The translations under genes were made by a program, and so were the position numbers. The notes beneath the pieces were generated by a model. The model did no database searches. It was not told where the DNA came from and saw only the letters and a program-made list of their open reading frames with translations. 64,000 bases of DNA from Branchiostoma floridae (Eukaryota > Chordata > Leptocardii > Amphioxiformes > Branchiostomatidae): positions 13,020,422 to 13,084,421 of the forward strand of contig NC_049992.1 of the NCBI RefSeq assembly GCF_000003815.2. Reading direction: 5' to 3'. This document shows positions 1-54,900 of this stretch, in pieces. Numbering within the stretch: the first letter of the stretch is position 1; the number at the start of each line of letters is the position of its first letter.

Positions 1-3000
1 AAAATTTTAACCTCTTTGCAGTACACAAATAAATGTACTATGGTATGTTTTTCCTTACAGTTATTGCATCGGTCGGTTTTTACTAGATTTGTTTTTTTTA
101 ACCAGCTGTTTGTAGGTAGGAAATGGTGAATTATCTTGTACTGAAAATATTGTAAATTGGTTTCTTTAGTGACAATAAAGGCGGTAGTATAAACTTTCTC
201 GATGTTGTCTTTGCCAATTTTTCGTATGATTTCGTTTTCTCTAGTGGGTGGTACAACTTGTTTTTCTATAAGGGTATCGTATATCTGCTTACATGTTGTT
301 GTGAGGGGATGGATTCTCTCCGTGTATTCAATGATAGTTTTAGAGGCGCACTTTTTTCCATTGTTTTTTATATTATCTTTCCAATTTTTTGGTATTGCCG
401 CTTTTATAGAATTGTAATTCAATATTTGTCTTGAATCCATGGTCAAACCATATAAATTGTGTAGGTCTTTGTTTGTAAGAAAAGATCCATCCTCGTACAA
501 CAAATCATTCAGATAGATAATTCCGGCATCTATCCAGATTTTGTAAAATATCGGTGCATTCTTTACTAAAATAAATCTATTGTTCCACAAAACTTGCGAA
601 CATATTTGTCTGTGTGTTTTGGGTTCGTATCCTATCACTTCTTCCCATGCAACTAAAACATCTTTGTAAAATAGGGGCATGTCGTTAAGATCTAACTGAG
701 AAGTAGCGTAATTGCATCGGAAAATCAAGAAACCTCCCCATCTTGCAAACAAGTGCTCTTTTTCTTTTGATGGGTCCATTACAAATCTTTTAATCCATAT
801 GGCTTTTAAGGCCTTGTTCATTATATTAAAATCGATCATTTTAAGTCCACCTTGACATTTTTTGCTAATCAGAGTTTTCATTTTTACTTTTGGAGGTTTC
901 TCTCGCCAGATATACTTGAATATGTATTCGTTTACTTGTTTTACAAATTGGGGAGGGACATGCATGACTGAACAAATATAGATCAACTTAGAGATGCCGA
1001 TGGTTTTCACAATCAATATCCGACCAATCAAGGTCAAGTTTCGTTGTTTCCATATGCTGCACGCTTGTACCATTTTTGTATAATTCTTATCAAGGTCTTC
1101 CTTATAGCATCTATGTCTGTCATGGCCAAAGTGCGCGCCCAGTGCTTTAATGGGACCGTCAGGCCAACGGATAGGGAGTGGCTTATCTTGTCTATCTTTG
1201 TTTGAGCCTATCCACATAGCTTCAGTTTTTCCATAATTTAGATCAAGACCACTACAATCCTTAAAGAGGTTCAACGTTTCTAACAGTTTCAGTGCAGAGG
1301 GTATATCTAGTAGTAGTGATGTCATGTCGTCTGCGTACATTGAGAGTTTTTGCATTCTACCGTACACTTGTAAACCTTTTATGTTTATATCTGCTCTAAC
1401 TGCTGAAGCTAACATTTCAATACAGATTATAAACAAGCTAGATGACAGTGGATCCCCCTGCCTTACACCTCTATGAACACTAAACCATGGAGATATATAG
1501 CCATTATTAAGCACACAGCTTGTTATATCAGTGTATAGCAATTTAACCCATTTGATCATGTTGTGTCCAAAGTTTACAGTTCTTAGTACTTTAAGTATGA
1601 AGGAGTGTTCGATACTATCATAAGCTTTTTTAACGTCCAGAACAATCAACAATCCCGGTTTCTTCTTTTTATCGTAATAATCTATGCTGTCATAGATACG
1701 CCTAATGTTTGTCCCTATATATCTCTGTTTGACAAACCCTGTTTGGTCTTCGTGTATTAGGAAAGGGAGTAAACGTTCAATTCGTAGTGTAAGTGCTTTA
1801 CTGACAATTTTATAATCTACATTTAATAGACTTATCGGTCGCCAATTGTCTAGATTACTTGTGTCTAACCCTTTCTTGGGAATTAGCCTTATTACTCCAC
1901 GTCTTAGTGAGATGGGTAGTAAGTTATTGTGGTACGCATCATTAATTGTATTAAGAAGGTAATCTTTTAGTAAATTCCAATACTTAATATAAAATTCTAT
2001 GGTGATACCGTCACATCCTGGTGACTTGTTTTTATTTTTTGACATAGCTTGTAAAGCTTTTCTCAGTTCTACCTCTTTCATTTCACCATCACAACTGGTC
2101 TTTTGTTCAGTGTTTAACTTTTTAACGTCATCATTGTCTAAAAAATAAGTTGATTCCTTCATGTCTGGGTAAGAAGAGGTATATAGTTTTTTATAGTACT
2201 CAGCTTCTTCCAATAAAATTGTTTTAGGGTCTGTTGTTATTGATCCGTCTTCCAAAGTCAACGACGAGATAGTCTTTTCTTTGTAGTTTCTTTTTTCCAG
2301 GTTGAAGAAGTATTTTGTACTCTTCTCTCCTTGTTCATTCCAATTGCATCTACTTCTAATGATAGCACCTTTAGTTTTGTGAGTTTGTATACTTTCTAAC
2401 CTTTCTTTTGTTTCACAGATGAATTTTTGTTTTTCAGGATCATCAAATTCATCTGTCTCCCTCATCAAGGAGTTTAATTGTTCTTCTAATTCTTTCTCCT
2501 CATTTTTGCGACTGCGCGCTTTATTTTTAGAGTATTGAATACTAAGTGATCTTATTTCCATTTTAATCATCTCCCATTGTATACCAGGCTGTTGGATATC
2601 TTTTAGTTTGTCCTTGATATTAGTGAGTAGATCTGTCATTTCTTTATCAAAAGTTTGATCCTCTAACAAAGAGTTGTTTAAACGCCAAAATCCTGGCCCT
2701 CTCTTTTGATATCTAGGCGACTTGACTGTCATTATTACCGCCCTGTGGTCAGGGACGGGCGCTACCTTAATGCTACATTCACTTAAGTTTACTAAATTGT
2801 AAGGTGCAAACCAGTAATCTAGCCTACATTTTATATTTTCATTTTGCCAAGTGTATTGTCTAGTATTGGGGTTTTTTTCCCGCCATACATCAGCCAGATT
2901 AAAAGACTTTAATAGGCATTGCATTTCTTTGATTGCATAATTTTTGTCGTCAATGGGTCTTCCTCCTGTCTTGTCTAATTCTGTTAGGGAAATATTACAG

Positions 3001-3449
3001 TCACCGCCAATGATAACTGTCCCACTAGCGTTTTCCTGAGCTAGCTTGTGAATTTCTTTGAAGAATTTCACTTGTTCTGTCCTTTTGTTTGGTGAATAAA
3101 GGTTAATTAAACTTACGTCATTATCGTTTACTCTACCATTTACCATTATGTATCTACCGTCTTGATCAAGAAGTGTCTGTTCTAAGTCTATATCTGCTTC
3201 AGGGTTAAAGAGCATCATTACTCCTTTCCCGTGAGCTGTGCCATGGCTAAAAACTATTTTCCCGCCCCATTCATTAGCCCAAAGTTTTTCATTTTCTTTA
3301 GCCGAGAAAGATTCCTGTAAAAAGGCTATGTCTGTTTTCTGGTTATGTATCCATCTAAATATTTTTTGTCGTTTCAGTTTGTTATTTAAACCTCTAACAT
3401 TTAAGGAGATAAACGTTAATTTGGACGTTAGAGAGTTTGATGAAGACAT
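1..3449 (-). CDS. LINE ORF2: endonuclease / reverse transcriptase (partial, C-terminus outside window)
   Basis: The frame is open from ATG at 3449 to the window edge, 1,149 codons. The N-terminal endonuclease starts with SLNVRGLNNK near residue 14, a catalytic-type Glu in FLQES near 46, GGDCN near 150 and the PDHR motif near 233. Reverse transcriptase blocks follow: SPGCDGI, NWRPISLLN, LDVKKAYDSIEH, RGVRQGDPLSS, and the catalytic YADD at about 705-708. Near the edge lies C-x2-C-x7-H-x4-C, close to the C-terminal cysteine motif of L1 ORF2 proteins, so only a short tail is missing. Frame was checked at both ends, around 2043 and at the YADD box. The start was chosen as the first ATG ahead of the endonuclease fold. 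The family's role is target-primed reverse transcription. Present activity is unknown. Confidence 0.9.
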   Translation of the reverse strand, partial: MSSSNSLTSKLTFISLNVRGLNNKLKRQKIFRWIHNQKTDIAFLQESFSAKENEKLWANEWGGKIVFSHGTAHGKGVMMLFNPEADIDLEQTLLDQDGRYIMVNGRVNDNDVSLINLYSPNKRTEQVKFFKEIHKLAQENASGTVIIGGDCNISLTELDKTGGRPIDDKNYAIKEMQCLLKSFNLADVWREKNPNTRQYTWQNENIKCRLDYWFAPYNLVNLSECSIKVAPVPDHRAVIMTVKSPRYQKRGPGFWRLNNSLLEDQTFDKEMTDLLTNIKDKLKDIQQPGIQWEMIKMEIRSLSIQYSKNKARSRKNEEKELEEQLNSLMRETDEFDDPEKQKFICETKERLESIQTHKTKGAIIRSRCNWNEQGEKSTKYFFNLEKRNYKEKTISSLTLEDGSITTDPKTILLEEAEYYKKLYTSSYPDMKESTYFLDNDDVKKLNTEQKTSCDGEMKEVELRKALQAMSKNKNKSPGCDGITIEFYIKYWNLLKDYLLNTINDAYHNNLLPISLRRGVIRLIPKKGLDTSNLDNWRPISLLNVDYKIVSKALTLRIERLLPFLIHEDQTGFVKQRYIGTNIRRIYDSIDYYDKKKKPGLLIVLDVKKAYDSIEHSFILKVLRTVNFGHNMIKWVKLLYTDITSCVLNNGYISPWFSVHRGVRQGDPLSSSLFIICIEMLASAVRADINIKGLQVYGRMQKLSMYADDMTSLLLDIPSALKLLETLNLFKDCSGLDLNYGKTEAMWIGSNKDRQDKPLPIRWPDGPIKALGAHFGHDRHRCYKEDLDKNYTKMVQACSIWKQRNLTLIGRILIVKTIGISKLIYICSVMHVPPQFVKQVNEYIFKYIWREKPPKVKMKTLISKKCQGGLKMIDFNIMNKALKAIWIKRFVMDPSKEKEHLFARWGGFLIFRCNYATSQLDLNDMPLFYKDVLVAWEEVIGYEPKTHRQICSQVLWNNRFILVKNAPIFYKIWIDAGIIYLNDLLYEDGSFLTNKDLHNLYGLTMDSRQILNYNSIKAAIPKNWKDNIKNNGKKCASKTIIEYTERIHPLTTTCKQIYDTLIEKQVVPPTRENEIIRKIGKDNIEKVYTTAFIVTKETNLQYFQYKIIHHFLPTNSWLKKTNLVKTDRCNNCKEKHTIVHLFVYCKEVKI

Positions 3450-3536
3450 GTTAAAAGAGTTATAACAAAAAAAAATATCTAAGCATTACCAAGAGCATGA
3501 CTTGATATGGATAGTAAAAACTAATACCGTACAGTC

Positions 3537-4304
3537 CTAGTTGTTGGCAGTCCCGCGATCAGAGATCACCAGTTTATCATACCGTATGTGAGCCACTTGA
3601 CCTCGTTCTCTGGCTGCCCGTAGTGCTGGTAGTAAGTCTTTCCTCTTTTGTCTGATCCTTTCCGAGTAGTCTTCATTAATGTAGATCGATGTACCTTTCA
3701 GCAGTTTTGCGTGTCTTAATATGCTCTGTTTGTCCTTGAAGCGTGAGAACTTCACCACAATGGGGCGTGGTCGATCTCCTGGTCTGCCATTACGATGAGC
3801 CCGTTCGATTTCTATTGCGTCGGTGTTCAGACGCAACTTGGTCTTCAGTACTTCTTTAACCTTGACTTCAGATTGTTCCCATGTCTCCTTCTTGTCGTCT
3901 TTGATCCCATCGAAGATAAGATTGTTCCTTCGTGACTGGTTCTCGATGTAGTCCACTTTGTTTACAATCTCAGTCACTTCGTTGTTGTAGGTCAGGATGT
4001 CTTGTTCCAACTGTTTTATTTTGTCCACGTTCTTTCCACTTACCGTTTTCATGTCACCGAGCTCTCCTTGTGAGAAGTTCAGACTGTTTTTTAAATCCTG
4101 CATCTCTCTGACGAGATTATCCATCCTTTGATTGGTTGAATCTGTTATTATTTGTACAAATGAGCGGAAAATTTTTTCCTGTTGGTCCAGGAGATCTTTG
4201 TAGTAGATTTTTTGTTGTTCCAGCATCTCTTTCATAAAAGCTACACTAACGGGTACTTCCTCGTCCATGACCGCGTTAGTGTTTGTGTTTCTCTTTGGTG
4301 GCAT
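3537..4304 (-). CDS. LINE ORF1: coiled-coil RNA-binding protein
   Basis: A complete 255-residue ORF. Residues about 20-115 are heptad-rich and predicted coiled coil. They lead into an L1-type RRM-like domain: SRRNNLIFDGI near 125-135, IERAHR near 166-171 and RPIVVKFSRFKDK near 180-192. A basic C-terminal domain (YINEDYSERIRQKRKDLL, then a RAARERG segment) follows. L1 ORF1 proteins trimerise through the coiled coil and coat LINE RNA. That is known of the family and only inferred here. The ORF lies 87 bp upstream of ORF2 in the same element, which fixes its identity. A five-residue tail follows the last recognisable motif. No break was seen. Confidence 0.9.
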   Translation of the reverse strand: MPPKRNTNTNAVMDEEVPVSVAFMKEMLEQQKIYYKDLLDQQEKIFRSFVQIITDSTNQRMDNLVREMQDLKNSLNFSQGELGDMKTVSGKNVDKIKQLEQDILTYNNEVTEIVNKVDYIENQSRRNNLIFDGIKDDKKETWEQSEVKVKEVLKTKLRLNTDAIEIERAHRNGRPGDRPRPIVVKFSRFKDKQSILRHAKLLKGTSIYINEDYSERIRQKRKDLLPALRAARERGQVAHIRYDKLVISDRGTANN

Positions 4305-5295
4305 GGTGGCGCTCAGGAGGTTGAACTAATCTAATTATCTCTCTCAAACTTGTCTCTAAGTGCAAAATACACAGTACAGCCCTTTCTTGGTTCTATATAG
4401 TTCACAATTTCGTTAAATAAGTGGATTTTACCGGTTTGTTGGAGAGATTTCGTTTCTTCGGTGTAGTGGTCCTGGATACGTTAATTGCACACACCGGCGT
4501 GCGTTGTCTGCACAAGAACAAAGGACGCACTCTCCGCCCTCCCACCTATGCAGGTCTGTGATCCAAAATCCTGGAGAAACTGGTCCCGTCTCCCCAAAAA
4601 TCTTCTTCGAAGTTGTACAAACTGTCTCTGCAACACTTCAACTCAAAAGTTCTCCTTTGGATGCGATAAATCACATCAAAAACTCATTCTTTGGAACAAC
4701 ATACGGAGAGACGTTGAATACCTGGCTTCTACCGTAAGCGCCACTTACCGATTTTTCCAATTAGAGATACAATAGAAGGCCACAAAGGACACAAAGGTTT
4801 CTCTGGACAATAATCTAATCTTATCTGACAGGGCACAAAGCAGGCCCTATAATCAAAGTCCTTCGACCGATCACTTCACTAATGGAAGGTACTTCTGGTC
4901 AATAGAAAATGTTCTATATTGACACAAAAACAGAACCACTATACAACTGTAGTGGTGCCGTTAATCTCTTAATCTTTTGATACCTCAGAGTGGCACAGAA
5001 TGTTGCTGCTCTATTTATAAAAAAAAGTTAATAGGTAAGCCCAACACAAAACTTTGCTTTCCTAACCTTGCCTTAGTCAAATTTCCTCTCAGCATAATCT
5101 GCCCTCTGCTAATCTCATGTTTTCTTCCTGTCTTTGTCCATTCATCCCTTTACTTCCCTGACCGGTATTCCTTCTTTTTCTATTCTGTTCCCACATTTCC
5201 TCTGTTACCCTTCCTCACTTCCTCTTTTTCCTCAGAGTCCCTTCCCCCCTTGCAAAATTCACCTCTTCTCGCTACTCCTTGATGAAACTAGCAAC
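4305..5295. other. LINE 5' flank / intergenic, no gene recognised
   Basis: The first part (about 4305-4480) is probably the 5' UTR of the minus-strand LINE. Beyond it the sequence is AT-rich with a pyrimidine-rich tract near 5090-5275. Short open frames on both strands here show no recognisable motif. If gene A continues leftwards past 5529, this stretch and the LINE lie in an intron of that gene. Confidence 0.4.
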
Positions 5296-17500: not shown

Positions 17501-20500
17501 TCCTTCTACAATAAACATTCAAGTACAAGATTCAACTGTTATAAATAAGTTTATCCTACATACACCTTCCTTTCACTGCTACCTGTACATGTTTTAAGTC
17601 AATCATAAATGCACACTTCTTTTGGATTTATCTATTTGTTTAATAACAGTACAGTGTAAAAGGCTAGAAATAGTCAACTAATTTAACAGCTATACAGAAG
17701 GTTAGATACATGCAGCAAAGGACATCAAAGGGAAAATACTGACACCTGAAAGTGAAAGTATTTCCTGACCTGGTCTTTTAAAGCCTTGACCTCAGACTTC
17801 CTCTGTTCCACCTCGTTCTCCAGCAGCAGAAGTTTCTGGGTGACCACAGCGTCTCCCTGTCCGGACTCCTTAGCCTTCCGCAGTTCTGTGTGCAGCTGGG
17901 AGACCTCGTTACGCAGCGAGTCGATGATGGTGTCCTTCCTCCTACACTCACCCTCAAACACGGCCAACCTGCTGATCTCATCACCCATACGCAGAATCTT
18001 TTGTTCCTGTTGGTACAAATCTATTGTTAGCAAGACAATGGCACAATTCTAATGTTAGCGAGATAATGGTACAAATCTAACGTTAGTGAGACAAGCCTTT
18101 CTTTTGGCACCCTGTTGAGAACAATCATAGCAGCTCTTAAAAATGATTGTCTCCTTTTGATAATTCCTTTTTCACAAATAGAAATCAGGGTTGGACAAGT
18201 TTTCTAGAATTCACTTGTCCTATTGGGCAAGTGCATAAAAAATTTACTTGCCCGAACCAGCTTTTCCCTTGCCTGAAATTTCAATGACATTCTTCTAAAA
18301 TAGAATGATGTATTTTGACTTCCATCGATGGAATTCTTGTTATTGACTCTGTTTTTCTATGTTGACCAATGCTTGATGTCATGAGTGTGAAAAGTAGCAG
18401 GTATATCAAAATCTTATTCAATGGAAAAAATCTAACTTGCCTGGTTGGGCAAGTGGGGTAGGTCATGCACATGCCCGATCGGCATTTTCACTTGCCCGGG
18501 ACAATAGGGCTAGTGGACTTGTCCAACCCTGGAAATTAGATGCACGTACATGGCAATACATACTATAGATAAGAATAGCAACTGTTGTATATTACAACTG
18601 TAGATTGTAGTTTAGGAGCATGCAGGTTTAAGTTTGGTTCAAATCAAATCAAAAATTCACCTTGTCCTGCAGTAGTGCAGGGGAGACGTCTGGGGTGGGA
18701 GAACCACTGACTCCATTTCTGCCTACCCAACTTCCTGAAATGGCTACAGAGGGGGAAAAGATAGTGGTTAGGATATAGCATGGTGGCTCAAGAACTGTAA
18801 GTGTAATCTAGAAACTGATAGACTATATTTGATGACAAACTCCTTGTCTATTAAAGAAATAACATTTGACAAGGTATTGAAAATTTCTTTACAACGAAGA
18901 TGAAACACTTTTTTAAGAATGTGATGTAAATTGTGTATCATAGACCCTTACTTCTGTGAGGCATCGGAGGACTGCTCTTGGGCGTGTTTGGGTCGCTGAG
19001 ACTGGCCCCAAAACTGCCTCTCCTGGCACCGGCACTCAGGGGGCGGGACTTCTGTGGGGGGTGGGGCAGTACCGGGGACCCTGAAAAATAAGGTAGACAG
19101 TTACAACATATAGTACGATGGTGACCTGGAAACTGTGGCTATCAATCATTGAACTTAAACATAATCATAATGCTATGACATATTTGATATTTTTTATTTT
19201 TGAGTCACACATCCTTTCCAAAGTGTTTGCCATGTGTGGTCATTCTGTGCTATATTTACCTGACCAAGCCCATACCAAGCTAGGTGCAGTACTGGTGGTT
19301 GTAGGTAGGAGATATTTACCTGAACCAGCCCATGCGAAGCTGGGTACAGTAGTAGTACTGTAGGATATATCATATATTTACCTGACCCGGCCCATGCAAA
19401 GCTGGGTACAGTAGTAGTAGGATATATCATATATTTACCTGACCCAGCCCATGGAAAGCTGGGTGCAGTATCGGTAGGATATATCATATATTTACCTGAC
19501 CCAGCCCATGGAAAGCTGGGTGCAGTATTGGTAGGATATATCATATATTTACCTGACCCAGCCCATGCGAAGCTGGGTACAGTAGTAGTAGCTGTAGGCA
19601 GGTAAGGCAGCTGTGTCTGTGAGGAGGAAGCAGGTCCAGGAGTCTGCAGGATGGTGATAGGAGCACTCCAGGCTGGACGCTGCTGGACAGGTGGATAGTA
19701 CACCTGTATAACAGAGGGGACGGAAGGGTTGATATCAAGGAACAATCAATCAATCAATCAATCAATGTTTCCTATAATGCTACAACCTTCCATATTTCTA
19801 CTTGATTGCAAACTCCTTCCGCATTTAACATATCATCTCCTTCAGATAATTACAATCTCCAGATTTGCATTATTTGTATTAAAAAATAGCGCAAAGAAAT
19901 AAGGGCAAAGCTAGTACCACTAGTATTTAGTGCAGAAGTTTAACCCATCCTTAGCACTAGCGTACAGGCCCTAGGGGCATTCCATTATTATTGAACAGGG
20001 GGAGAGGATCCAATACTAAACAACAGCTAGTGAAATATGCTTTTTCTACACATTAGGTGTTTCTTTAAGTTGACTCACCCTGTTCTGACTTACCCTATGT
20101 TGATACTGCAGGCATGGAAAGAAAAGAGTGGAGGCAGGTGTGAGATTTAGATCATTATGAAATTGTACAATCCAAGGCAGGACAAAGGAAAAGTGAAATG
20201 TAGACAAGGTAAACAAAATACAGACATCAACGTTCAAGGAAAATACAGACATCAACGTTCAAGGAGGTTGAAACAATTAGAGAACAATTAAGAGTGTGAA
20301 GCTAAGTATTTCCTTCAGAAGGATAAGTACTGAAAATACTTTGTTGCCATACTACCAGAAGGCATCCCAACAATTCAAGATCCCTTCCTCTTAAGTGAGA
20401 AAATTGTTATCTTATGAAATATTTATCAAGCAGTTTGGGGCTATTTTGTTCTCAAAGATTATAGACTTCCATGGAACTAAATAAGGCAACCTGCAATTAG

Positions 20501-23500
20501 AGCCCATTTATGAAGAATTGCTATCAAATTTGAATCCAACGGCCGTATAAATAATACAAAAACAAACTGACTCTTTAAACGCCGTCGACTATTTTTAGTG
20601 AATTCTGGCACCTTTTCCAACTTAGCTTTCAAAAAGGTGCAGAGATATTTGTAAATCGAAGCTCAGAGGCGAAGGATCATATTGAAATAGAAGCATGAGA
20701 AAGTTACAAATGAGACCTAAGAATGTGAGGTATGAAAAGATCACCAGACTTGTGTACATGTATACCAGTATGTTGTGATTTCACATTCTTGACTCGAGTC
20801 ATACCTGGGGTGCATCCTCCACCACCAGCTCATACGGCATTCCTCCGAACCCAAACTGGATCATGTCTCCAGGCGCCAGGCGCACGGCAGCGTTCTGGAT
20901 ACGGCAGTCGTTCACGTACGTCCCCTGGACCGTGTTCAGGTCCTGCAGCACAAAGCAGTTCTCGACATCGCTGTATTCGACAACGGCGTGCTGGCGCTCT
21001 ACGCTCTGGGCCTGAGACAAAGACAAAATGTTGACAGGTTACAACGTTGTACAGGACAGGTTCTTTTTAATTTCTGGTGCTGTCATTCAAAAACAGTTGT
21101 TGTTCTAGTCACCATGGTTATACTAATAACACCCAGAAGCATCTTAAACTCAAGATGGAATCCTAAGTGACCAAAATTAAAATTTGTACTAATTAGTCAA
21201 GGAAGAGCTCAGAGGAAACTTTTTGTGCTGGTCCCTTATCCATTATTTATCTGCTCTAATGGTTTACACTATTACAGGTCTATGTATATCAAAACCTTCT
21301 GTATATATACATGCAAAAATGTATCATAGAATAAAGCATACTTGATCTATTTTATTTCAGAATGCTTAAGAATCAACAAAACATCTACAAACATTTATCT
21401 AAATAAAACCTAAAGTTTGCTGAAATCTTTATCTGTAATGATACTTACTTGTCCAGCTACTACTAAGTTTTCCCAATCAATCAATTTAATAAATTAGACG
21501 AGGCTACCCTTTGTTCTGAGCTCTAGCTCTGTGCCTGAGGGGTCATGCAATGGAGTTTCAAAGGAGCAAACAATGTACATAAAGTCACGGCTTGTTAGGT
21601 TCATTGAATGGCAATAAGCCAATAATCATGGGGACGCTGTCTGGGCAGTTTGAATTGGTAGGAAGAATGGTTACTGAGAAATTGTACTGCCTCAAGACAG
21701 GTTGAAACTGTAACAGTTTTGTTGTTTCAATCAAGAACAAGCCTTTATTGCTGACTTGCTGTAATAGCAGATGCATATGATTTAGAATCATTTATAATAG
21801 GACAAGTTGTCCTATTCAATTGATAACAGTTTTTTAGTGACTGTTGTCAACAGTCACTAAAAACTGTTATCAATTGAATCTTTCAAAAAAGACCATGGAG
21901 AGGCCCATACAAGAAAAAGAGAAAAGTTGCTCCCTGCACAACACCTCCAAACACACCTGTTTTAATATACTCTTGCTGTCTCTCTCCACACCATGATTAA
22001 TATATTAACCTTTTTGACACTGAGCTTCCAACGACCTGTCAGTTAGCCATTGTTCAGCTACAACATGTAATATTACTCCTGACCAGTATGGCAGTCTTAC
22101 CAGTCTCCAAACAAATCTTTACAGAATAAACGATGGGTGAAATTGGTTTTAACCGTCTGCTACAAAGAGCTGGCATGTTGGCATGATGCTTTTGTAACCT
22201 AATTGTCAAGCATCAACCATTCTTTATCACAGTACTGTGACCCCATGGATGCTGATGCCAAAATATGTCTGAACATTAGCAAGGTGTGAAAAGATCATTT
22301 CAACAGGCAGATAACAGTTATTCTTAACCACTTACTATTAAAAATAGATACCCGGTAAAAGTTACTACTATGAATAAAGATTTATATTTTGTAGGTTGGC
22401 AGAAAATGTTCAATATTATGATACATATAGATGTAACTAATGCTACATTCTATTTTGAAGGGAGAGTATACTAAACTGTGTGGGGAACTTATCTCATCCT
22501 GGTACAACATTCCGTACCTACTGCCATGGTGTAAGCAAGGTGGTTTAGTAACACAAGGTACAACCAAGCCTGTTTTTAAACGTTGTACATGTGTACATAC
22601 AATTTGCTTTCACCTTAAATCTTCTACACACTTTCAAAAACAAGTAACTCATTCGTCATTCCTTACGTTTGCAAACAGCACACGAACCATACAAGCTTTA
22701 AATCCCTATTTCTAGGGTGCTTGACCCTAATTAATCGCACTTTAGGACTGCAGGTGGTGCTATTTAAACATTGCTTGTTTACAAACTGTGTGCAATTGAG
22801 ACTTATTACATTTAGTATTATTTACACTTTTAAAGACCAACATAGTCTGCCAGACTGGGAGAGAAATCTAAAGTACCTGTATCTAAAGTTGTAACACTTT
22901 GGTTTTGACAGTCTGGTGAATGGGGAATATTCCTTTTGCAAATGGAATGGAATGTGCAATGTATCTAAATTAAAAGCCCTAGACTCTAGAGTCAAGCTAG
23001 TGAAAAGTTGTTCTGTTGCCCAAACCTTGTTAACAACCGTACAGATTAATTATTCATGCCTAATGGCAAACTGTGTCCTTCTGATCCCAGCTGCAGTCTA
23101 CAAATGGAACAACCCTTTTAACTTTGGCGTAACCACTCCTGGGTTGCTAAGCAACTCAGAGATTTAGTGCACTGACTTTGCTTGGCATATATACAGCTAC
23201 AAGATGTAAATCCCTTTGAGTGCTTTCAAGGTCGCAAATAGAAAAATCTGCTCCAGAACTTGATCTCCCAGAGCCTTTAGCTATGGTACACAATAGAATA
23301 TTATAGATCATGCTGTAACATGTGCTTCTTTCATGTTAGTGATGGGTAAATACATGTAGAGCCAGACATGACTTTAGTGGACAGCCTTTTGAGGTACCAG
23401 AGTTGCACAGCTGGTGTGTTACGCCGAAGCCAGACTATATTTCATTTGCTCCATCCATCTATTGTAAAGTTGTCAAGACTTTGGTGGAGGCCTGTGGTTC

Positions 23501-35600: not shown

Positions 35601-38600
35601 CCAAGTTAATCAGGGTGTTGGGCCAAGTTGGGTCTGATCCCTTTTACATTGTAGCACAATCAGATGAACAAAACAATACGACTTACCAGACTGAGTATAG
35701 TGAAAATCCTTTACATGCTAAATCAGAGATGGAAAACCCTTACTTCTTGCCCACATCTCTAACAGAGTCAGAGATTTTAGAACTGTGATTGTAAACATGT
35801 CCTTGGAACATTTCACATCCAAACTTCTCAACAGACATCTACAAACACCTGAAGACAGATCCGGGTCAGAGCTAATCCTTGAGACAGAATGATTTGCTGA
35901 AAGAAGTACTAGTAATCCTTCACAATAGTCATTGGATTGGTAAGAAATATTTACCATAGAAACTGGAAGCCACGTTAACAATTCCACTTCAAAAATTTAC
36001 CCCACTTTTAGTGACATTTGGTCATTAGTCTTGACAAAGAAGAAAACTACTAGTACTTATCTTCTTGAAGTAGCAAAATCATACCTTTTCTTCACCTGAC
36101 CACATCCAATGGTAGAGACAGATATATACTTTGCCAAGGTACATGCCAAGTGTAGTTGTGGTTGTATGAGACTAAATATTTGTTTGAAACTTTACCAAGT
36201 ATACAGAGCTATGTGATCTTGATTGTGATAACATTCCACTAACGACAGAAACAGTTGAATTTCATTAGTAATAGAATATCGGTGTAAACTAGCAACCCTA
36301 CCTTCAACTTCATATTCGTTTTAATGAACGACTTAATAATGACGTGTTACACATATAAGAAGTTTTAGTTTGATAAATGAGGGACAGGTATATTGTGCTT
36401 CATTTACATTCTTCACTAGTTTCAATTAATTCGTACAACATACATTTTTTATCCACAATTCTTAGACTGAAAAGTATAACACAAATTAACAGTCAACATA
36501 AATTTTATACATGTCTTTGAAACTATTGTTATAGATTAAACTGATAATTAATTTAAAACAGACACATCAAACAGAACGTATGCAATGCCATGGTAACAAC
36601 ACACAAGCAATGGATCCCACCTAGTTAAGCTGTTACAGTACCTAATCTATTTGATACAAGAGGGGGGATATAGTTACAGAAAAAAGACAATGGATAATTG
36701 TTAAAAGAATGCCATCTACTGTCACTGATGCTTAACTATGGGTGGATAAGTTTACCACACAAAAATTTAGCATCAAAGTTCATCAGCTTTCCTAACAGTT
36801 TTTGCACCACTATGAATTGGAAACTCTGCAAAGATTTTGACTGGCTTTGCAAGTTTCTTAGTCCTCCCTTGAAAAATTCTATACAAGAGAGTCTGTATGC
36901 TTCTTTTCCGTAGGACGTAGGCAACGTATTTTGATTTCCCATAAGTCATAAGGAAAGCTCAGTCTTTTGCACATGATTCTTGGTGAAGAGACCAAATGTT
37001 GCATATTTGACTTTCTTGATTTTAACTTAATTCATAGGGGGTTCTACTGAATTCAGCGTTAAGAGTTGTCTGGACCCTCCATACAGACCCTCCAATAAAT
37101 CGTCATCAAAGTACCAAATAAAAGGGATGTTCAGACAGTTACCTCTAGTTCGTAGCCTTCTCCTTCTCCCGCGAACTTGATGACATCTCCTGGAGCCAGT
37201 CGGACTGCTCCGGTGGGAACGCGACAGTCGTTCACGTACGTCCCGCGCTGTGACTTCAGGTCCTGCAGCACGAAGCAGTGGTCACGCTCGTTCAGCTGGA
37301 TAACAGCGTGGTGATCCTCCACATGGGGGTTCTGCAATGAGATGGGAAGCAGTTTGTTTTAACCAAAAATAGGGAAACCTTCTCAATTCTGCATGCACAT
37401 AATATAAGTCACTTGAGTAGTATTCAATCGGATGTCACTGAAAAAAACAGAGGGGCGAGTAGAACAGAAAGAAACAAACTCTTAGGATTCGAACCTGCGA
37501 CAAACCCGGGCAGCCGAATCACAAATCCAACGTACAAAATGATGGCACCCGTGCAGACTGTGGTCTTTTGCAGCTGCTTTTATAAAGCTTTTAAAATCCC
37601 ATAAAAGAAAATTGTTCTTTGAGATACTTGATAGTCCAGCAACAAACAAGAAAAGGCTATTTAAGGCATCAAGGCTTGATCCTAAGCGTCATAAGGGCAC
37701 GTAACAAAATACAGTCCAAAAACATCCTGAGAAAGAAATGGAAATGTAATTCCCTGCTGTTTTGAATAAAAAGGCAATGTTTACAACTTTCATCCACATA
37801 GCTGCGTTCTTTTTGTGTCTTTCTCTACCGCCGTGTTCCATGTCATTCTTAAATACAGGCATCCCCCTTGTGTAAACACTGGGAAATGCAGGCAGACAAA
37901 CGCTCCTGCATCACCGTGTGGGTTTAGTTTCCTATCAGGTGCCGACGTGTTGACCTAAGGACCTGATCGCATTCCTCCGCACGTTTCTTCTGATTGAAAC
38001 AAAAGGGGCGAGTAGAAACAGTCTCCTGGCTCCACCCGCGCCAAACCATTTGGCAAGACAGTTTGGCGGCACTTGGACCCCAGACCAGTGTTACATGTTA
38101 CAGTTTTGCCAGGCTTGCTCTGGACGAATAAGGAACACCTGTTACCATAGTAGAAAATCTGCATATTTCTTTTTCCCTTTAAGTTTATGTCCTGTTTATG
38201 TCCTATATTTTGCCCTTTAAGCTTATGTCCTGTTTCACAGTCAACATACTGTAGCCATCTCTATTAAGAAATTGCATTGTTTGCTCACAATGGCGCAAGT
38301 CTAATCATCTATTCAGCAAATAAAAATGATAAAGTAGATCCTGGCATATGGAAGTCCTTTTGGACTCCTGGCATTGTTACAGACATATATGTAGAGCTGT
38401 ACCTATGAATATCCAACAATAAAAAAGGGACTGATCTCTGTCTAAAGAAAGTATTGTTAGGTACTTTGAGTTAAGGATCATTAAATGTTTCATCAATGGC
38501 TAACCAGGCCAAGTAATTATTGACATATGGTTAACTGACAGGGACTATTGTATCTCTCGGAGCAGAGATAATTGTGAAGCAATGCTTGAGTGCTACTGCA

Positions 38601-45142: not shown

Positions 45143-45747
45143 TGGATTCATAACGTCTTGTATGGAACTGCTTCCGTGTCTTCAAGGTCCAAATTCCATA
45201 GCACCTGCACTGAACTCGAGACTTCCTAAGACCTTGGCGGTACAGTTGAGAGTGTCGTGAGACTCTTGAAAGCCCAACGGATTGAAAAATCGGTTAAAAA
45301 GGCGTCTTAGCCGGCCCTCAGAGGGTTTTGTCGAGTCTACCTGGCCGATCCTTGCCTCTGCCAGCCACAATGCAAGGCGGGATCATGTGTCCCATGTTGG
45401 ATACAACGCACACAATGGGGGAAAACTCCGATCAACAAGTTGACAGCGCAAAGGGCATGCGTCCCGCTACCATGGCAACACAGGTGACGGCCGCCCCGCT
45501 AGGCAGGTGCGCTGAGCAGCACACCTGTTAGGAGCGACGCTTTGCGAGAAATATACGCATTGCAGCTAGTCAGAACTTGCAAAGCTGTCATAGATTCGTA
45601 GGGACATACAAGTTACAGGTATACTAGGCATGCAAGTAACGTTACTTCTTGAATTAGGTACAACATAACAATACATAACGTTATATCTTCACTGAAAGGT
45701 GCTACTGACATCTCGGACCATCCCGGAGGACTGGCCATATAAACTTC
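45143..45747. promoter_or_regulatory. Shared head-to-head promoter of gene B and DJ-1
   Basis: Only 605 bp separates the gene B start (45142, minus) from the DJ-1 leader start (45748, plus). The interval is the most CpG-rich part of its neighbourhood (around 45485) and lacks coding signs. At 45466-45479 is GCTACCATGGCAAC, a near match to the palindromic X-box bound by RFX factors. An in-frame TGA at 45706-45708 closes the DJ-1 leader frame upstream. Confidence 0.55.
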
Positions 45748-45895
45748 ATGGCTGCAGCCCGCCAAAGTTGGAAGCTGCTATCCTCCGTCACAAAACGGGT
45801 GTTTTTCCCCGTAAAGCTGTCCCAAATAGCCTCGGCAGTTCCCTTCATACATTCTATAGCTTCTCGTGACAAGTTTGAACGCCATTTTTCGACAG
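45748..45895 (+). other. PARK7: DJ-1 first exon: predicted mitochondrial presequence
   Basis: The frame from ATG 45748 to the GTAAGC donor at 45896 gives 49 residues plus one base. The next exon supplies five bases before the canonical ATG, restoring frame as Asp-Asn-Met. The leader starts [20 protein letters not shown], is rich in Arg, Lys, Ser and Ala, has its first acidic residue only near position 41, and ends ERHFST. These are classic features of a cleavable matrix-targeting signal. An in-frame stop upstream (45706-45708) makes this the first possible start. The canonical Met in the next exon would allow a cytosolic form. Confidence 0.75.
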
Positions 45896-48800
45896 GTAAG
45901 CCAGAAATGCCCACAGAATCTATTAACTTTGTGGGGAGTATGAAGAAAACGCTTTTCTCGAGCCTTTTACGAGAGTTCAAAGGTCGGATCTGCCAAATGT
46001 ATACGGGGATATTTATTACCTATAAAAAGTCTACATATATACACACTATGCTATTTACTTATTGATGTATTTATAATTTTGCAATGATTTTCATGATTTT
46101 TGTATTGTTTTCAATAGTAATATCGAATCTATTTTGTCAACGTAAATCCAACACCCCTACGTTTGGTGTGTTCCCTACCAGACAACATGGGTGACGAGGA
46201 GGTGACAGCGCTGGTGATTCTCGCCGAAGGTGCGGAGGAGATGGAGACCGTAATCTCGGTCGACGTCATGCGCCGCGGAGGGGTGAGGGTCGCTCAGAAA
46301 TTGTAGACAATCAAGGACTGAAAAGCACAATGTCATGTATTTGCTTTGCTCGTGACCTCAGAGAGCAAGCGCATCAAAACCCTTACGTTACAACATACCA
46401 TGACTATGAGCTTTCATGTTGCCTATTCAGTTCTATTTTTGTTAGATACCAACAGTAAGTAGAATAGAAACAAGGGGATATGAAAAAAAAAATTCATTCA
46501 GGAGAACTAAGTATTATCCAATGCATCACAATGGCTTAACTCTTAGTCTTACTATCCAATTTGTTTTCGGATGCCCCTCTTCCATGATTATGAAGGGGGC
46601 GTGGTCATATAGGTCATCTGCGGGTATGACAGTCTGACTGTAACATTAGGAAGTTGAGTAGTTCACATTGATACAGAACATGCTGTCCAAAAGTCAATTC
46701 ATATACATANNNNNNNNNNNNNNNNNNNNNNNNNNNNNNNNNNNNNNNNNNNNNNNNNNNNNNNNNNNNNNNNNNNNNNNNNNNNNNNNNNNNNNNNNNN
46801 NNNNNNNNNNNNNNNNNNNNNNNNNNNNNNNNNNNNNNNNNNNNNNNNNNNNNNNNNNNNNNNNNNNNNNNNNNNNNNNNNNNNNNNNNNNNNNNNNNNN
46901 NNNGCTCGCAAACATGTAAGCATCTTATGTAGCATTCACTTTCTTTGCAACAAGACATTGTGTATATACAATCTTACTAATGACATAATGAAACATGATT
47001 TCGGAAACGTCCATATCCAGTTGCTGAAATAACTGCTAGTTGGCATATTTTATTACCTTGATGTCTAGCCATTGTTGATGTGTGATGAAACATGATTTAG
47101 CTCGAGGATATTTTATTACCTTGATGTCTAGCCATTGTTGATGTGTGATGAAACATGATTTAGCTCGAGGATATTTTATTACCTTGATGTCTAGCCATTG
47201 TTGATGTGTGATGTATACTTAATGTTATTTATAACATGATGAAACATGTTTTTGGATATGTTCCAAAATCATATCCAGTTGCTGGAATAACAGCTAGTTG
47301 GCATATTTTATTACCTTGATGTCTAGCCATTGTTGATCAGATGTGTGATGAAACATGATTTAGCTAGAGGATGTTTTGTTGATATCATTCAGTACATGAT
47401 GAATTTTTCACAAACATCACAGGTATGCCTGTTATGATTAAATGATACTGTTGTATTCCCCAGGGTCCCTATGATGTGGTTGTATTACCTGGAGGACTAG
47501 GAGGGGCAAAGAACCTGGCTGCTGTAAGTTACAACTTGTCATATAATATACTTGTTGCATATTATCCAACTCTACTATAGCTGCCCAATGTCTTTTGACC
47601 TCTTCTTGAGGAGCTACTAGCAGACCATTGATTTAGAATTGAAATTTGCCATTGAATTGTACATCACATTTTGTAAACAGTATGACCACCATCTTGTTTC
47701 CCTGTGACCTCTGTAGTCCCCCAAGGTGAAGGAAGTGTTACAGGAGCAGGAAGGGAAGGGATCCCTGGTGGCTGCCGTGTGTGCAGGTGAACGCTTCTTC
47801 TTGCTCTCCTTTTTTTCTCAAATTCAGTTGTCCTAACGGGCAAGTACATGCCAAAACCAATTTTTCACTTGCCCAGAATTCGAATCACATTTTCTGTATC
47901 TGTATCAATATAGCCGGTATAACCGCCCTTCGGCGTGACCAAGGAGGTTATATTCTGAATATAACCTCCTTGGCGTGACACACCATTTTCCTAATGCATT
48001 TTCACTTCCAGCTATGGAATTCTTTTATTATTGGCTCTATTTTTCTGTATTGACCACTCAATGGTTGATGCCATTACTGTGAAAAGTAACATGTACATTT
48101 ATATAAAGATGTCACTCATGGAAAAATCATATGTGCCCAATATGACATGCGCTTGCCAGATAGGCGCTTTACTTGCCCTGGACAATCGGGCTAGTGGACT
48201 TGTCCAACCCTGTCTTCTTACACATGAAATAAGATGTGAAATAATCTTTGACAGCACTTTTTTTTAACCTTCTTAACTTTTTTATCTGTGGAGGGCATTG
48301 CAATGTCTTTTTTTTTTCAATTTCATACAAGTTGACAAGGTTGCCAACCCTTTGCCTCCCCCAGGTCCCACAGCGTTGGTGAGCCATGGCATCGGGAAGG
48401 GCAAGACTGTCACCTCTCACCCCAGTGTGCAGAAGGTTATGGAAGAAGGTATCGTCCAAAGTTTTAGCTTCTAGAGTTAAATACATCTTTAAAAAATGGT
48501 TCTGAAGGGAGAAGACATCTTTGTTGTACTTTGTGTGACCCTCACTTTTTCTCTTTTGACCTCAATGAAAAGCAGAATTTCTGAATGAACAAACAAACAT
48601 CATCATCATATTGTTCCGCATCAGTACTGCAGTACTTTGCTGGGGTGTTAGATTCAATATCCATGTACATGAGCATAGTAGATAATCATTTGTATAAAGG
48701 TGCAATGTTTAATAAAAGTACAAAGTCTTCCCACTCTAAAAGTGCATGTAGGACTCCTCAGTAGTGTCTGTGTTTAATTTGACCTGTCCTGTTGTGTTCC

Positions 48801-48963
48801 AGCTGGCCACCCCTACACAGAAGCCCGTGTGTCCAGAGATGGCCACATCATCACCAGCAGGGGGCCCGGAACCTGCTTTGAGTTTGCTCTGCAGATCGTA
48901 GAGACGCTCCGAGGCAAGGAAGTGGCTGACAAACTGGTCTCTCCCATGCTGGTCAAACTGTAG
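45748..48963 (+). CDS. PARK7: DJ-1 / PARK7 with N-terminal mitochondrial-type leader
   Basis: Exons: 45748-45895 (leader), 46182-46282, one ending at 46915 whose start is in the N gap, 47464-47523, 47717-47786, 48365-48448, 48803-48963 (stop TAG). From Met at 46187 the protein follows vertebrate DJ-1: [11 protein letters not shown] with the conserved Glu, [21 protein letters not shown] with the reactive Cys (106 in human), TSHP with the His (126 in human), and [14 protein letters not shown]-1 is a dimeric redox-sensing protein of the cytosol, nucleus and mitochondria, and its enzymatic activities are debated. Exon 1 joins with phase to put 49 leader residues plus Asp-Asn in front of the canonical Met. 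The exon with human Cys53 is missing in the gap. It is convergent with SLC25A11. Confidence 0.94.
46710..46903. other. Assembly gap hiding most of a DJ-1 exon
   Basis: A run of 194 N. Immediately after it, GCTCGCAAACAT reads Ala-Arg-Lys-His before a GTAAGC donor at 46916, matching the end of the human exon encoding the segment just before GPYDVV. The exon's acceptor and about 30 codons therefore lie in the gap, whose true length is unknown. Confidence 0.9.
47000..47370. repeat. 63-bp tandem repeat in a DJ-1 intron
   Basis: Units containing TTACCTTGATGTCTAGCCAT start at 47045, 47108 and 47171, exactly 63 bp apart. A further unit at 47303 is preceded by a second copy of the sequence (CCAGTTGCTG-ATAAC-GCTAGTTGGC) that precedes the first. 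Confidence 0.85.
47820..48212. mobile_element. MITE with TIR ACTTGTCCAACCCTG, left-truncated copy
   Basis: It aligns along most of its length with 18186-18531 (for example GGAATTCTT, GTATTGACCA, TTGATGCCAT and the right end ACTTGTCCAACCCTG), but the left 30 bp are missing. A short palindrome is inserted near 47940-47971. It lies in a DJ-1 intron. Confidence 0.75.
47940..47971. mobile_element. 32-bp palindromic insertion with 8-bp flanking repeats
   Basis: CAAGGAGGTTATATTC and its inverse make a near-perfect palindrome, flanked on both sides by GGCGTGAC. This section is absent from the related element at 18186-18531. It could be a minimal MITE or the footprint left by a larger one. Confidence 0.55.
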
Positions 48964-49361
48964 TTCTGTCCTCTATCGATCCTCCAGGGATCTAAAGCAT
49001 TTGTTGTGTAGACATGGCTATCAAAGAAACTTGAAAATCTTGACACTGAAATGGTGAATTAGATATGTCATGTTGCTACTGTAATAACGGTTGAAACTGT
49101 AGGAAAAGTAAGAAATATTGTGGTTTAAAATTAAGTCTTTGCAATGCTGTGGTGAGTATTATTTTCTTATCACTGTAGAAACAATAATGCTTTCAAAAAG
49201 AGCTGTAAGCTATGTATGATGAAAAAAGCTGTGCTTTTAAATGGAAAACATCAAGCATGCTACTAGTAGATTGCTTGTAAAATTCTCTTTGCAAATCCAC
49301 TATTGTGTTCTTTAAATGAGTCGCGGAAGGTCAAGGTGTTCTTTGATTCTGGGAGAAGTAA

Positions 49362-51941: not shown

Positions 51942-54900
51942 CTAGAGGCTGCTGCCTGTCCCCTCCTCCCCCATGATGACCTTTCTGTAGAGGCGGTTCA
52001 TCTGTTCCAGGAAGATAAAGGTGATGACCGTGTGGGGGCCCAGACGGAAGTAGTATGGGGTGAACCCCTTCCACAGGCTGAACAGCCCCTCCTGTCTGAT
52101 GACCTTGTACAGCACGTCCAGCGCTCCGCGATACTCAGCCTTCCCATCCACTACCTTCATGTTCTGTATCCTGTACATAGCCGGCCAAGAATATGTTATC
52201 TCTTATGATAAGTAATAGGTCAAACATGCAAGTGTCAAGTATATGGTCTAAACTTACCCAGTAGCTGTGTTAACTTTTTTTTTCATTGTTTCCCTGTGAT
52301 TTGGTTTTTTCAATGGATATCTAGCTACATTAATCTAAAACTTTTGCTGTGTATTGTGGACGTACAGTAATATGCTTTTAACTACACGCAGTGATGTTTG
52401 GAGTTGAAAGCAACTTTGCGAGGCTTGACATCTACAAAATAATTTTTCACATAAACTGGTGTATGTCCTCCATTGTAATCACTGTGGCAAATTTTAACAA
52501 TTCAGAACATAAACACCAAATTACCCAAAATTTTCCCATTTCATGGTAGATTCTACCACAAAAAGACCTTTGATGGATCAATAAATGTTACACTCTTTTG
52601 TTCAATCAGATGCCTGATTTATATACAAAGTTTGGTGACTGACAGGTTGAGTACTGACCTGGTTTTCGCAATGTCCACTGGCATGGAGGCAGCAGTGGTG
52701 ACCAGACCACTGATCATACTGGCAAAAAAGTGACACAGGATGTTGTCACGAAACCAACCTAAGAAAACAAACAAATAATAACAAAAATAAGTGAGAAAGC
52801 ATTGATGGACATTTCACATCCAGGTAATAAGATGCACTAGTACAAACTTTTTCAAGCTACTGGATCAGTTTAATTGTTCAGATGTTTCAGATACCTCAGT
52901 CACTGAGGAAAGAGTGGATGCTGTCTGAAATGTCTGGCCATTTATAAAACTTACCAAGCTGCTTGAGTTACTTTTGAATTGTGCATTAAAAAGTAAGTGG
53001 GAAAAGTACCTATCTCAATCTTTTGATACAAGGTTGATAGCAAGTTTTATTTATCTATTTTTTACACAGAAAGTGGTTTTCAATATAGTTACAGGTAGTC
53101 CAAAGCTAAAGCCTAAAGTAAAGGTATTTCAAAAAACAAAGACACCTACCTGTACCCAAGAGGAACTGCTTGGCTTGAGAGTAAGATGCCAGCTGAGCTG
53201 CATTCACCACAACAGCTCTGGACACCGTCGGGCCACAACCCTGGAACACAAGCAAAACTGATTAACACCAAGGTGTTTGTGCTATCTAAGACACTACATT
53301 TAGTAATTAAGAAAGTCAAACCTGTCAAACCTGGTCGCTCAAGGGACTGAGCAAATTTGACCACTATGAACTATAACTTCAAGGCCACCCTAAATTTATT
53401 GGTTGTTTCACAGATTTTTTCAGAAAAAAATTCAACTGACAGGTAAAAACAAAATGCACAAGTAGTTATGAACATGAATAAGACTACAGTACAACTTGAC
53501 TTTTTCAATACTAATCAAAGACTTCTGGTTTCATCATTTTAAGCAGCACAAATATCTGCAAGCTGTATTTTACTACCTTTAGCTCTGGGACACAGCAAGG
53601 GACCTCACCTTTCCCTGTTTCATTCCTATTGCCCTATTGTTTTCATGACAATCTATCTATTCTGTATTATAGGTACTCACTCTCCATAAAGTGAAGAGAC
53701 CTTCTTCCCTAGTTATCCGAGCCAAGGCATTGAAAACACTGCTGTAGTTCCTTCTTTCAGCTACCGGTAATCTACAATTGGGGGTGAAAAGACATTCAAC
53801 CATTTGAAAAACATATGACATGTTTGAGCTTGTGCAGTTTGTTGCTCATCACATTAAGACTTGACATACCAAAACTGGTTCAGTGTGATATTTTTAAGCC
53901 ATCAATAGAGTACAAAAGATAAGATGAAACATGTACAAAGCAGTAGGAAAAATACAAATGTAACACAAAGCCAGAAGGAAAATGACACTGTTTATGTTTA
54001 TCAAGATGCTGACCAGAGTTATATTTTTATGTTGTATAAGAAATACATGTACTATAAATTCATAATCAAACAAGAAAGCAAAGAAGGTCCTTGCCTTCCA
54101 TCTGCTGTCATCCTTATAAGTGAGATCTCTGCAGGAGTTCCTACAAATGCACCAATTGCACCTGCTGTCATACCTGTGGACAAGAAACAACAGGTCTAAG
54201 CTATAATCAAATACTGGATACAACTACTATAATGTATTGATGTATTGTCTAAGGCGGGTATTTTGTCTTCCAGCCTATTCAATCTAACCGCCTTATTGCA
54301 ATGTCTCATATATATAGTATCATCATTCTCACAACACTTCAAAGTGTCTAAGCAGTGTACACACCTATCCCTGCTTTCATGAAGAAGTTAGGGGGCTGAC
54401 CATTCTTGCTAAATTTCTCAAACAGAATGGTGTAGATACCCAGACGGGTGGTGGTGTAGGAGGCTTGTCGTAGAAGCCCTGCAGACAACCTGGAGAAAGA
54501 AAAAGCCTCACCAGTACTGTACCATATGATAATGTGCTATGAACGTGGTGTATAACATTTGAGGTAACAAAGCCAACACACTTGTTACAATTTCATTTAT
54601 TTCTTGAACCTATCAAAGCAAACTTTTGTAGTAGGATCATCAGAAAATGGCAACTGTTAGCAAAACTTGACTCCACAAACAAAGAAATCTTGCTACAAGC
54701 AGAAAAAGTCCTTCTTAACTTATGTATATATCTACTCATTAGATTTGTTATACTACTTATAGTTAAGAATAAGAATAAAGATGTCAGTTGCACTTACCCT
54801 GTATACATGCCAATAATGCCTTCAGATCTCAATATACTTGACACAGCATGAAAACTGGTCTTATATTGTCTCTTCCCCCCTCCTTCACCTGGAAACAAAA

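What the first reader, a model, noticed from the sequence alone, without database searches (positions are those of the whole stretch)
45748..46282. DJ-1 gene with an in-frame mitochondrial targeting exon
Exon 45748-45895 encodes 49 residues with strong presequence character ([20 protein letters not shown], late first acidic residue, RHFST end). It joins in phase through Asp-Asn to the canonical DJ-1 Met. Human DJ-1 has no such cleavable leader, and its mitochondrial entry is a long-standing question. One gene could make matrix (leader) and cytosolic (second Met) forms. The leader, splice sites, phase and upstream stop are seen. Targeting and dual localisation are inference.
Basis: partly seen in the sequence, partly recalled or inferred. 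Interest (0 to 1): 0.78.

Follow-up and report, generated by a model that had tools for sequence, protein, structure and literature searches.

The report
Amphioxus DJ-1 with predicted mitochondrial leader
In what appears to be an amphioxus genome, the gene matching the human Parkinson's protein DJ-1 has an extra first exon that reads in frame and looks like a removable mitochondrial address label, so one gene could make both a mitochondrial and a cytosolic DJ-1; no RNA or protein evidence was available to prove it.

Summary
Exon 45748-45895 reads 49 codons from an ATG, ends at a very strong splice donor (2 of 3,784 GT sites on the window's + strand, itself included, score as high) and joins in phase to 46182, just before the canonical DJ-1 Met. 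The gene is a true DJ-1 (best structure match DJ-1, E 2.6e-55); its third exon is probably hidden in an N run. The leader has no acidic residue before 41, six basic residues in 1-40, an amphipathic stretch and an RHF/ST cleavage-like end. The first ATG has a weak Kozak context (T at -3), the canonical ATG a strong one (A at -3); no ATG lies between. Human genes with this layout make mitochondrial and cytosolic forms by leaky scanning. Dual targeting is the likeliest reading (about 0.55). Against it: leader codon usage is not coding-like, 11 other open frames in the window score at least as presequence-like, and a TATAAA 10 nt before the ATG could place the transcript start inside the leader. 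No transcript, relative or import data could be had. Organelle-targeted DJ-1 is known in plants; my searches showed none reported for animal DJ-1.

The parts
45738..45744 (+). TATAAAC, TATA-like sequence 10 nt upstream of the leader ATG; supports the rival reading (transcript start inside the leader) if used
   Evidence: TATAAA occurs 37 times on the + strand of the window
45748..45895 (+). leader exon, 49 codons + 1 nt: [49 protein letters not shown]; predicted mitochondrial presequence with R-3-like site RHF/ST (motif recalled)
45896..46181 (+). intron 1, GTAAGC...CTACCAG; donor CAG/GTAAGC is one of the 2 best of 3,784 GT sites on the window + strand
46182..46282 (+). DJ-1 exon 2: last two bases of the Asp codon, Asn, canonical Met at 46187-46189 (AAC ATG G), residues to ...DVMRRGG; ends in phase 0
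46710..46903 (+). N run where exon 3 (about 34 residues) is expected
47464..47523 (+). DJ-1 exon 4: [20 protein letters not shown]
47717..47786 (+). DJ-1 exon 5, with the catalytic Cys (AAVCAG, human C106)
48365..48448 (+). DJ-1 exon 6, with TSHP (human H126 equivalent)
48803..48964 (+). DJ-1 exon 7 to the stop codon

Best explanation
This is a DJ-1 (PARK7) gene of a genome that appears to be amphioxus; a DNA search found its 5' region only once in that genome. Its first exon encodes a cleavable mitochondrial presequence that splices in frame onto the otherwise ordinary DJ-1 protein. Ribosomes that start at the first, poorly placed ATG make a precursor that is imported into the matrix and cut near RHF/ST, leaving STDN in front of the canonical Met. 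Ribosomes that pass it, or transcripts that begin inside the exon, start at the well-placed canonical ATG and make cytosolic DJ-1. Shown: frame, phase, splice signals, sequence character, start contexts. Inferred: transcript, both starts, import, cleavage, matrix function.
For: The donor at 45895 is far stronger than any other of 57 GT sites between 45165 and 46176 (11.2 against 7.64 for the next). Of the 8 best donors there, only 45895 and the weak 45982 join an open frame from 45748 to the canonical Met; 46165 and 46141 join short frames from ATGs at 46084/46093 but would leave introns of 16 and 40 nt (donor frequencies recalled). Leader chemistry: no acid before residue 41, 6 basic residues, moment 0.63 over 11 residues. 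Simulated frames with no acid, at least 6 basic residues and an R-3-like site near the end: 4 of 1,491 open (20,000 starts, local composition) and 21 of 3,938 open (20,000 starts, exon composition). A discriminant on 25 presequences and 21 cytosolic N termini recalled from memory (44 of 46 right when left out) gives the leader 0.998 and the canonical N terminus 2e-7. First ATG has T at -3, second A at -3; both have G at +4. No ATG in any frame between them, 2.6 expected from local density. A weak first AUG with an in-frame second AUG, the longer form mitochondrial, is shown by experiment for human TRNT1 (PMC12718117, passages and section 10 read) and ALDH9A1 (PMC13219423, abstract and section 8 read).
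Against: Leader codon usage is neutral (0.01 bits per codon against 1.14 for exon 2, which was itself in the training set). 12 of 231 open ATG frames in the window, the leader included, score at least as presequence-like, and the leader lies below the lower quartile of the recalled presequences (6.0; quartile 10.1; minimum 3.1). TATAAA at 45738 would place a start near 45768, inside the leader (spacing recalled). No conservation test was possible. A second DJ-1 gene that might serve the cytosol could not be excluded, since the protein search of the genome did not complete.
Confidence: 0.55

Rival explanations
1. The exon is an ordinary 5' untranslated first exon. Transcription starts inside it (for example about 30 nt after the TATAAA at 45738), or the frame is open by chance, and only the canonical Met is used, as in human DJ-1.
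For: TATAAA at 45738; neutral codon usage of the leader; weak context of the first ATG; human PARK7 is recalled to have a noncoding first exon.
Against: Open frame, presequence chemistry, R-3-like end right at the canonical start and the lack of intervening ATGs all have to be coincidence. TATAAA occurs 37 times on the + strand of the window.
Confidence: 0.28
2. The leader is always translated and this gene makes only mitochondrial DJ-1; cytosolic work is done by another gene or is absent.
For: Presequence character. The whole-genome protein search for a second DJ-1 copy did not complete, so a paralogue is not excluded.
Against: Weak first and strong second start context and absence of any ATG between them favour use of both. 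The Pfam DJ-1_PfpI scan of the genome gave one place, L001; by eye it reads as a more distant relative. That scan did not report the window's own split exons, so it is weak evidence.
Confidence: 0.12
3. Two promoters or alternative first exons: one transcript carries the leader, others start in intron 1 or inside the leader exon, giving the two forms by transcription rather than by leaky scanning.
For: Such a switch is described for the yeast TRNT1 homologue CCA1 (PMC12718117), and changes of 5' UTR length by alternative transcription starts tune the two forms of some human genes (PMC13219423, abstract). The TATA-like site near the ATG would fit a mix of starts.
Against: No promoter mapping was available; intron 1 was looked at for TATA-like sites only (one TATAAA at 46021).
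Confidence: 0.05

Closest known systems
Human DJ-1 / PARK7
   Same: Orthologous protein (best structure-chain match, named DJ-1, E 2.6e-55), active-site Cys, Glu and His kept; exon ends agree with the human gene as recalled
   Different: Human DJ-1 has no mitochondrial targeting signal; its first 12 residues are needed for mitochondrial placement of mutants but did not carry GFP there (PMC3542337, passages). Here a 49-residue leader lies in front.
Arabidopsis AtDJ1B and AtDJ1C
   Same: DJ-1 homologues with N-terminal extensions predicted to target plastids and/or mitochondria (PMC3160306, abstract and passages)
   Different: Tandem double DJ-1 domains in separate genes; AtDJ1C acts in plastids. 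Here one domain and a mitochondrial-type leader with a usable second start
GATD3A
   Same: DJ-1-related animal protein placed in the matrix by an N-terminal signal (PMC8935817, passages)
   Different: A different gene of the superfamily, largely resident in mitochondria; the window gene is DJ-1 itself
Human TRNT1 and ALDH9A1 (dual products by start-codon choice)
   Same: Weak first AUG with leader, downstream in-frame AUG for the shorter, non-mitochondrial form (PMC12718117; PMC13219423)
   Different: Those are shown by experiment; here only the sequence layout is seen

Membership tests
DJ-1 / PARK7 | DJ-1_PfpI domain, best match to animal DJ-1 | tested here: met
   Pfam PF01965 E 2.7e-37; the top chains are named DJ-1 (human, as recalled), then 'DJ-1 beta' 4e08 at 6.9e-42, then bacterial YajL at 2.4e-25
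DJ-1 / PARK7 | Active-site Glu18, Cys106, His126 equivalents (triad as named in PMC3542337) | tested here: met
   [20 protein letters not shown] aligned to DJ-1
DJ-1 / PARK7 | Residues of human exon 3 (Cys46, Cys53 and the segment around them) | not testable with these tools
   N run 46710-46903
Cleavable mitochondrial presequence | No acidic, several basic residues, amphipathic helix | tested here: met
   specificity limited: 12 of 231 window frames score as high, the leader included
Cleavable mitochondrial presequence | Processing-protease motif near the mature start (R-3 type, recalled motif) | tested here: met
   RHF/ST at residues 45-49; an R-3-like site within residues 35-49 in 73 of 1,491 and 197 of 3,938 simulated open frames
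Cleavable mitochondrial presequence | Import and cleavage | not testable with these tools
   needs localisation or N-terminal proteomics
Dual-localised product by start-codon choice | Weak first AUG, strong in-frame second AUG, no AUG between | tested here: met
Dual-localised product by start-codon choice | Both protein forms made from the gene | not testable with these tools
   no RNA or protein data
Coding exon | Codon usage like neighbouring coding exons | tested here: not met
   0.01 bits per codon against 1.14 for exon 2. Low power: 1,120 training codons, partly from open frames picked by eye, exon 2 among them; 49 test codons

The most novel reading that the evidence does not exclude
Amphioxus keeps a true presequence on DJ-1 itself, with start-codon choice setting matrix against cytosolic dose. 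If the leader is ancestral for chordates, vertebrates lost it and the inefficient, stress-linked mitochondrial entry of human DJ-1 is a remnant of a once dedicated matrix enzyme.
Probability: 0.2. Interest if true: 0.8.

Novelty: new variant of a known kind. Interest (0 to 1): 0.52.

Why it matters
How and why DJ-1 reaches mitochondria is unsettled for the human protein (PMC3542337; PMC8935817 notes that some controversy remains). A close animal orthologue with a built-in leader would show that matrix DJ-1 has its own selected function and would give a natural construct with which to test it, by leader removal or by forcing the first start.

Tried and rejected
Considered and rejected: that the gene is GATD3A or another PfpI protein (best matches are DJ-1); that the leader is a separate upstream gene (it ends at a donor in phase with DJ-1); RNA structure in the leader (z -0.84, nothing unusual); a second haplotype or processed copy in the genome to test conservation (a DNA search with 45560-46300 found only itself; that search skips simple repeats and very common words). 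Exon 6 was first set one base too long and corrected. A weak Pfam match of the leader to Cse1 (E 0.034, below its cut-off) was taken as chance. Literature: 10 searches; 8 on DJ-1 targeting or DJ-1 in amphioxus, one on GATD3A (22), one on amphioxus promoters (30). Papers listed in those 8: 0 of 0, 30 of 2,466, 14 of 15, 10 of 10, 15 of 24, 8 of 8, 12 of 51, 12 of 21. No title or abstract start listed showed an animal DJ-1 with a presequence. Seven papers were opened, each only in part (PMC3542337, PMC8935817, PMC12718117, PMC6292497, PMC13219423, PMC3160306, and PMC10138432, passages, nothing on a leader); most subscription papers are not held.

Full report
What is there. The gene is on the + strand. 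Exons: 45748-45895 (leader), 46182-46282, 47464-47523, 47717-47786, 48365-48448, 48803-48964; every visible donor is GT and every visible acceptor AG. The expected third exon is not visible; a 194-base N run at 46710-46903 lies in its place. The joined protein with X for the missing part matches DJ-1 chains from residue 53 on (best E 2.6e-55; human by sequence as recalled) and 'DJ-1 beta' 4e08 (6.9e-42); the equivalents of Glu18, Cys106 and His126 are kept. Pfam DJ-1_PfpI scores 2.7e-37. The match begins after the leader, so the leader is an addition to a full DJ-1 protein.

Setting. The genome held has 513,431,437 bases in 431 contigs and the window lies in contig 14; size and content fit the amphioxus Branchiostoma floridae, as I recall that assembly. 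Organism identity was not otherwise tested. About 600 bp upstream, on the other strand, a probable FHAD1-like gene starts near 45151 (name and start by its sequence, as recalled; its 35-residue first piece had no Pfam match, but an FHA exon at 37134-37358 on that strand does). Such head-to-head pairs are common in amphioxus: 3,950 of 15,884 neighbouring protein-coding genes in B. lanceolatum (PMC6292497, passages). Downstream at 51945-52202 lies a mitochondrial carrier exon.

Is the leader exon real? The donor at 45895 (CAG/GTAAGC) scores 11.2; the next best of 57 GT sites in 45165-46176 scores 7.64, and only 2 of 3,784 sites on the window's + strand, itself included, reach 11.2 (recalled frequencies). 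It is stronger than the four other donors of the gene (4.6 to 7.95). An exon ending at 45895 is therefore likely. Where that exon begins is not known. The in-frame TGA at 45706-45708 limits the leader to the ATG at 45748, unless the exon is internal and begins between them.

Is the leader a presequence? It has no acidic residue until 41, six K/R in 1-40, an 11-residue window with moment 0.63 and an 18-residue window with 0.51, and ends RHF/ST, which fits the recalled R-3 processing motif. In 20,000 simulated ATG starts with local composition, 1,491 stay open, 67 also have no acid and at least 6 basic residues, 14 also reach the 11-residue moment, and 4 have no acid, at least 6 basic residues and an R-3-like site; with the exon's own composition 3,938, 440, 121 and 21. 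On both strands of the window, 231 of 2,630 ATGs are open for 49 codons; 7 of 231 have no acid and at least 6 basic residues, the leader among them. A discriminant trained on N termini recalled from memory gives the leader 0.998, but 12 of the 231 (leader included) score as high or higher, 40 of 231 are called presequence-like, and the leader lies in the low part of the presequence range. So the chemistry is right but not rare by itself; the force of the case comes from its place: in frame, directly before DJ-1, bounded by the gene's best donor.

Evidence against. Codon usage of the leader is neutral: 0.01 bits per codon; other frames of the exon, both strands, -0.22 to 0.11; exon 2 1.14; intron 1 -0.41 to -0.50. 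Exon 2 was in the coding training set and intron 1 in the background set, so those two yardsticks are flattering. Presequences are compositionally odd and 49 codons are few, so this is a weak negative. TATAAA at 45738 (one of 37 on the window's + strand) would, if a TATA box, start transcripts near 45768, past the first ATG (spacing recalled).

How it most likely works. The first ATG (CTTC ATG G) lacks a purine at -3; the canonical one (CAAC ATG G) has A there; both have G at +4. No ATG in any frame lies between them in the leader exon, against 2.6 expected from local density. That is the arrangement which lets scanning ribosomes use both. In human TRNT1 a weak first AUG gives mitochondrial and cytosolic/nuclear forms by leaky scanning (PMC12718117, section 10 read). 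In human ALDH9A1 a weak context and a very short 5' UTR do the same, and mitochondrial genes are enriched in short 5' UTRs (PMC13219423, abstract and section 8 read). A start close to 45748 would thus fit either leaky scanning or a purely cytosolic product; transcript mapping decides.

Comparison. [quoted passage not shown] GATD3A, a related animal protein, does have a matrix signal (PMC8935817, passages). Plant AtDJ1B and AtDJ1C have extensions predicted to target organelles (PMC3160306, abstract and passages). So an organelle-targeted DJ-1 is a known kind; in animal DJ-1 proper it would be a new variant. I cannot exclude that gene annotations of amphioxus or other invertebrates already carry this leader, since no animal protein collection was available.

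Verdict. Observation confirmed; interpretation plausible and partly supported; dual targeting at 0.55, untranslated exon at 0.28. Public CAGE and RNA data should settle it.

Noticed in passing
window 3-4325, - strand: LINE-type retrotransposon with a 1,161-codon open frame (reverse transcriptase E 2.2e-32, endonuclease 4.9e-13) that reaches the window edge, and a second 262-codon frame before it.
   Followed up: partly
window 20802-21038 and 37134-37358, - strand: Two FHA-domain exons (E 1e-12 and 6e-13) with coiled-coil-like frames after each (by eye): probably two tandem FHAD1-like genes, the second head-to-head with DJ-1.
   Followed up: partly
window 19197-19745, - strand: Open frame with tandem peptide repeats of the type APSFPWAGSGKYMIYPT.
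   Followed up: no
window 47045-47213: 63-base tandem repeat, 2.7 copies at 100% match, in a DJ-1 intron near the N run.
   Followed up: no
L001 (own genome, contig 11): The only Pfam DJ-1_PfpI match of the genome scan (E 1.5e-6); by eye its frames read like a more distant PfpI relative. The scan did not report the window's own split DJ-1 exons.
   Followed up: partly
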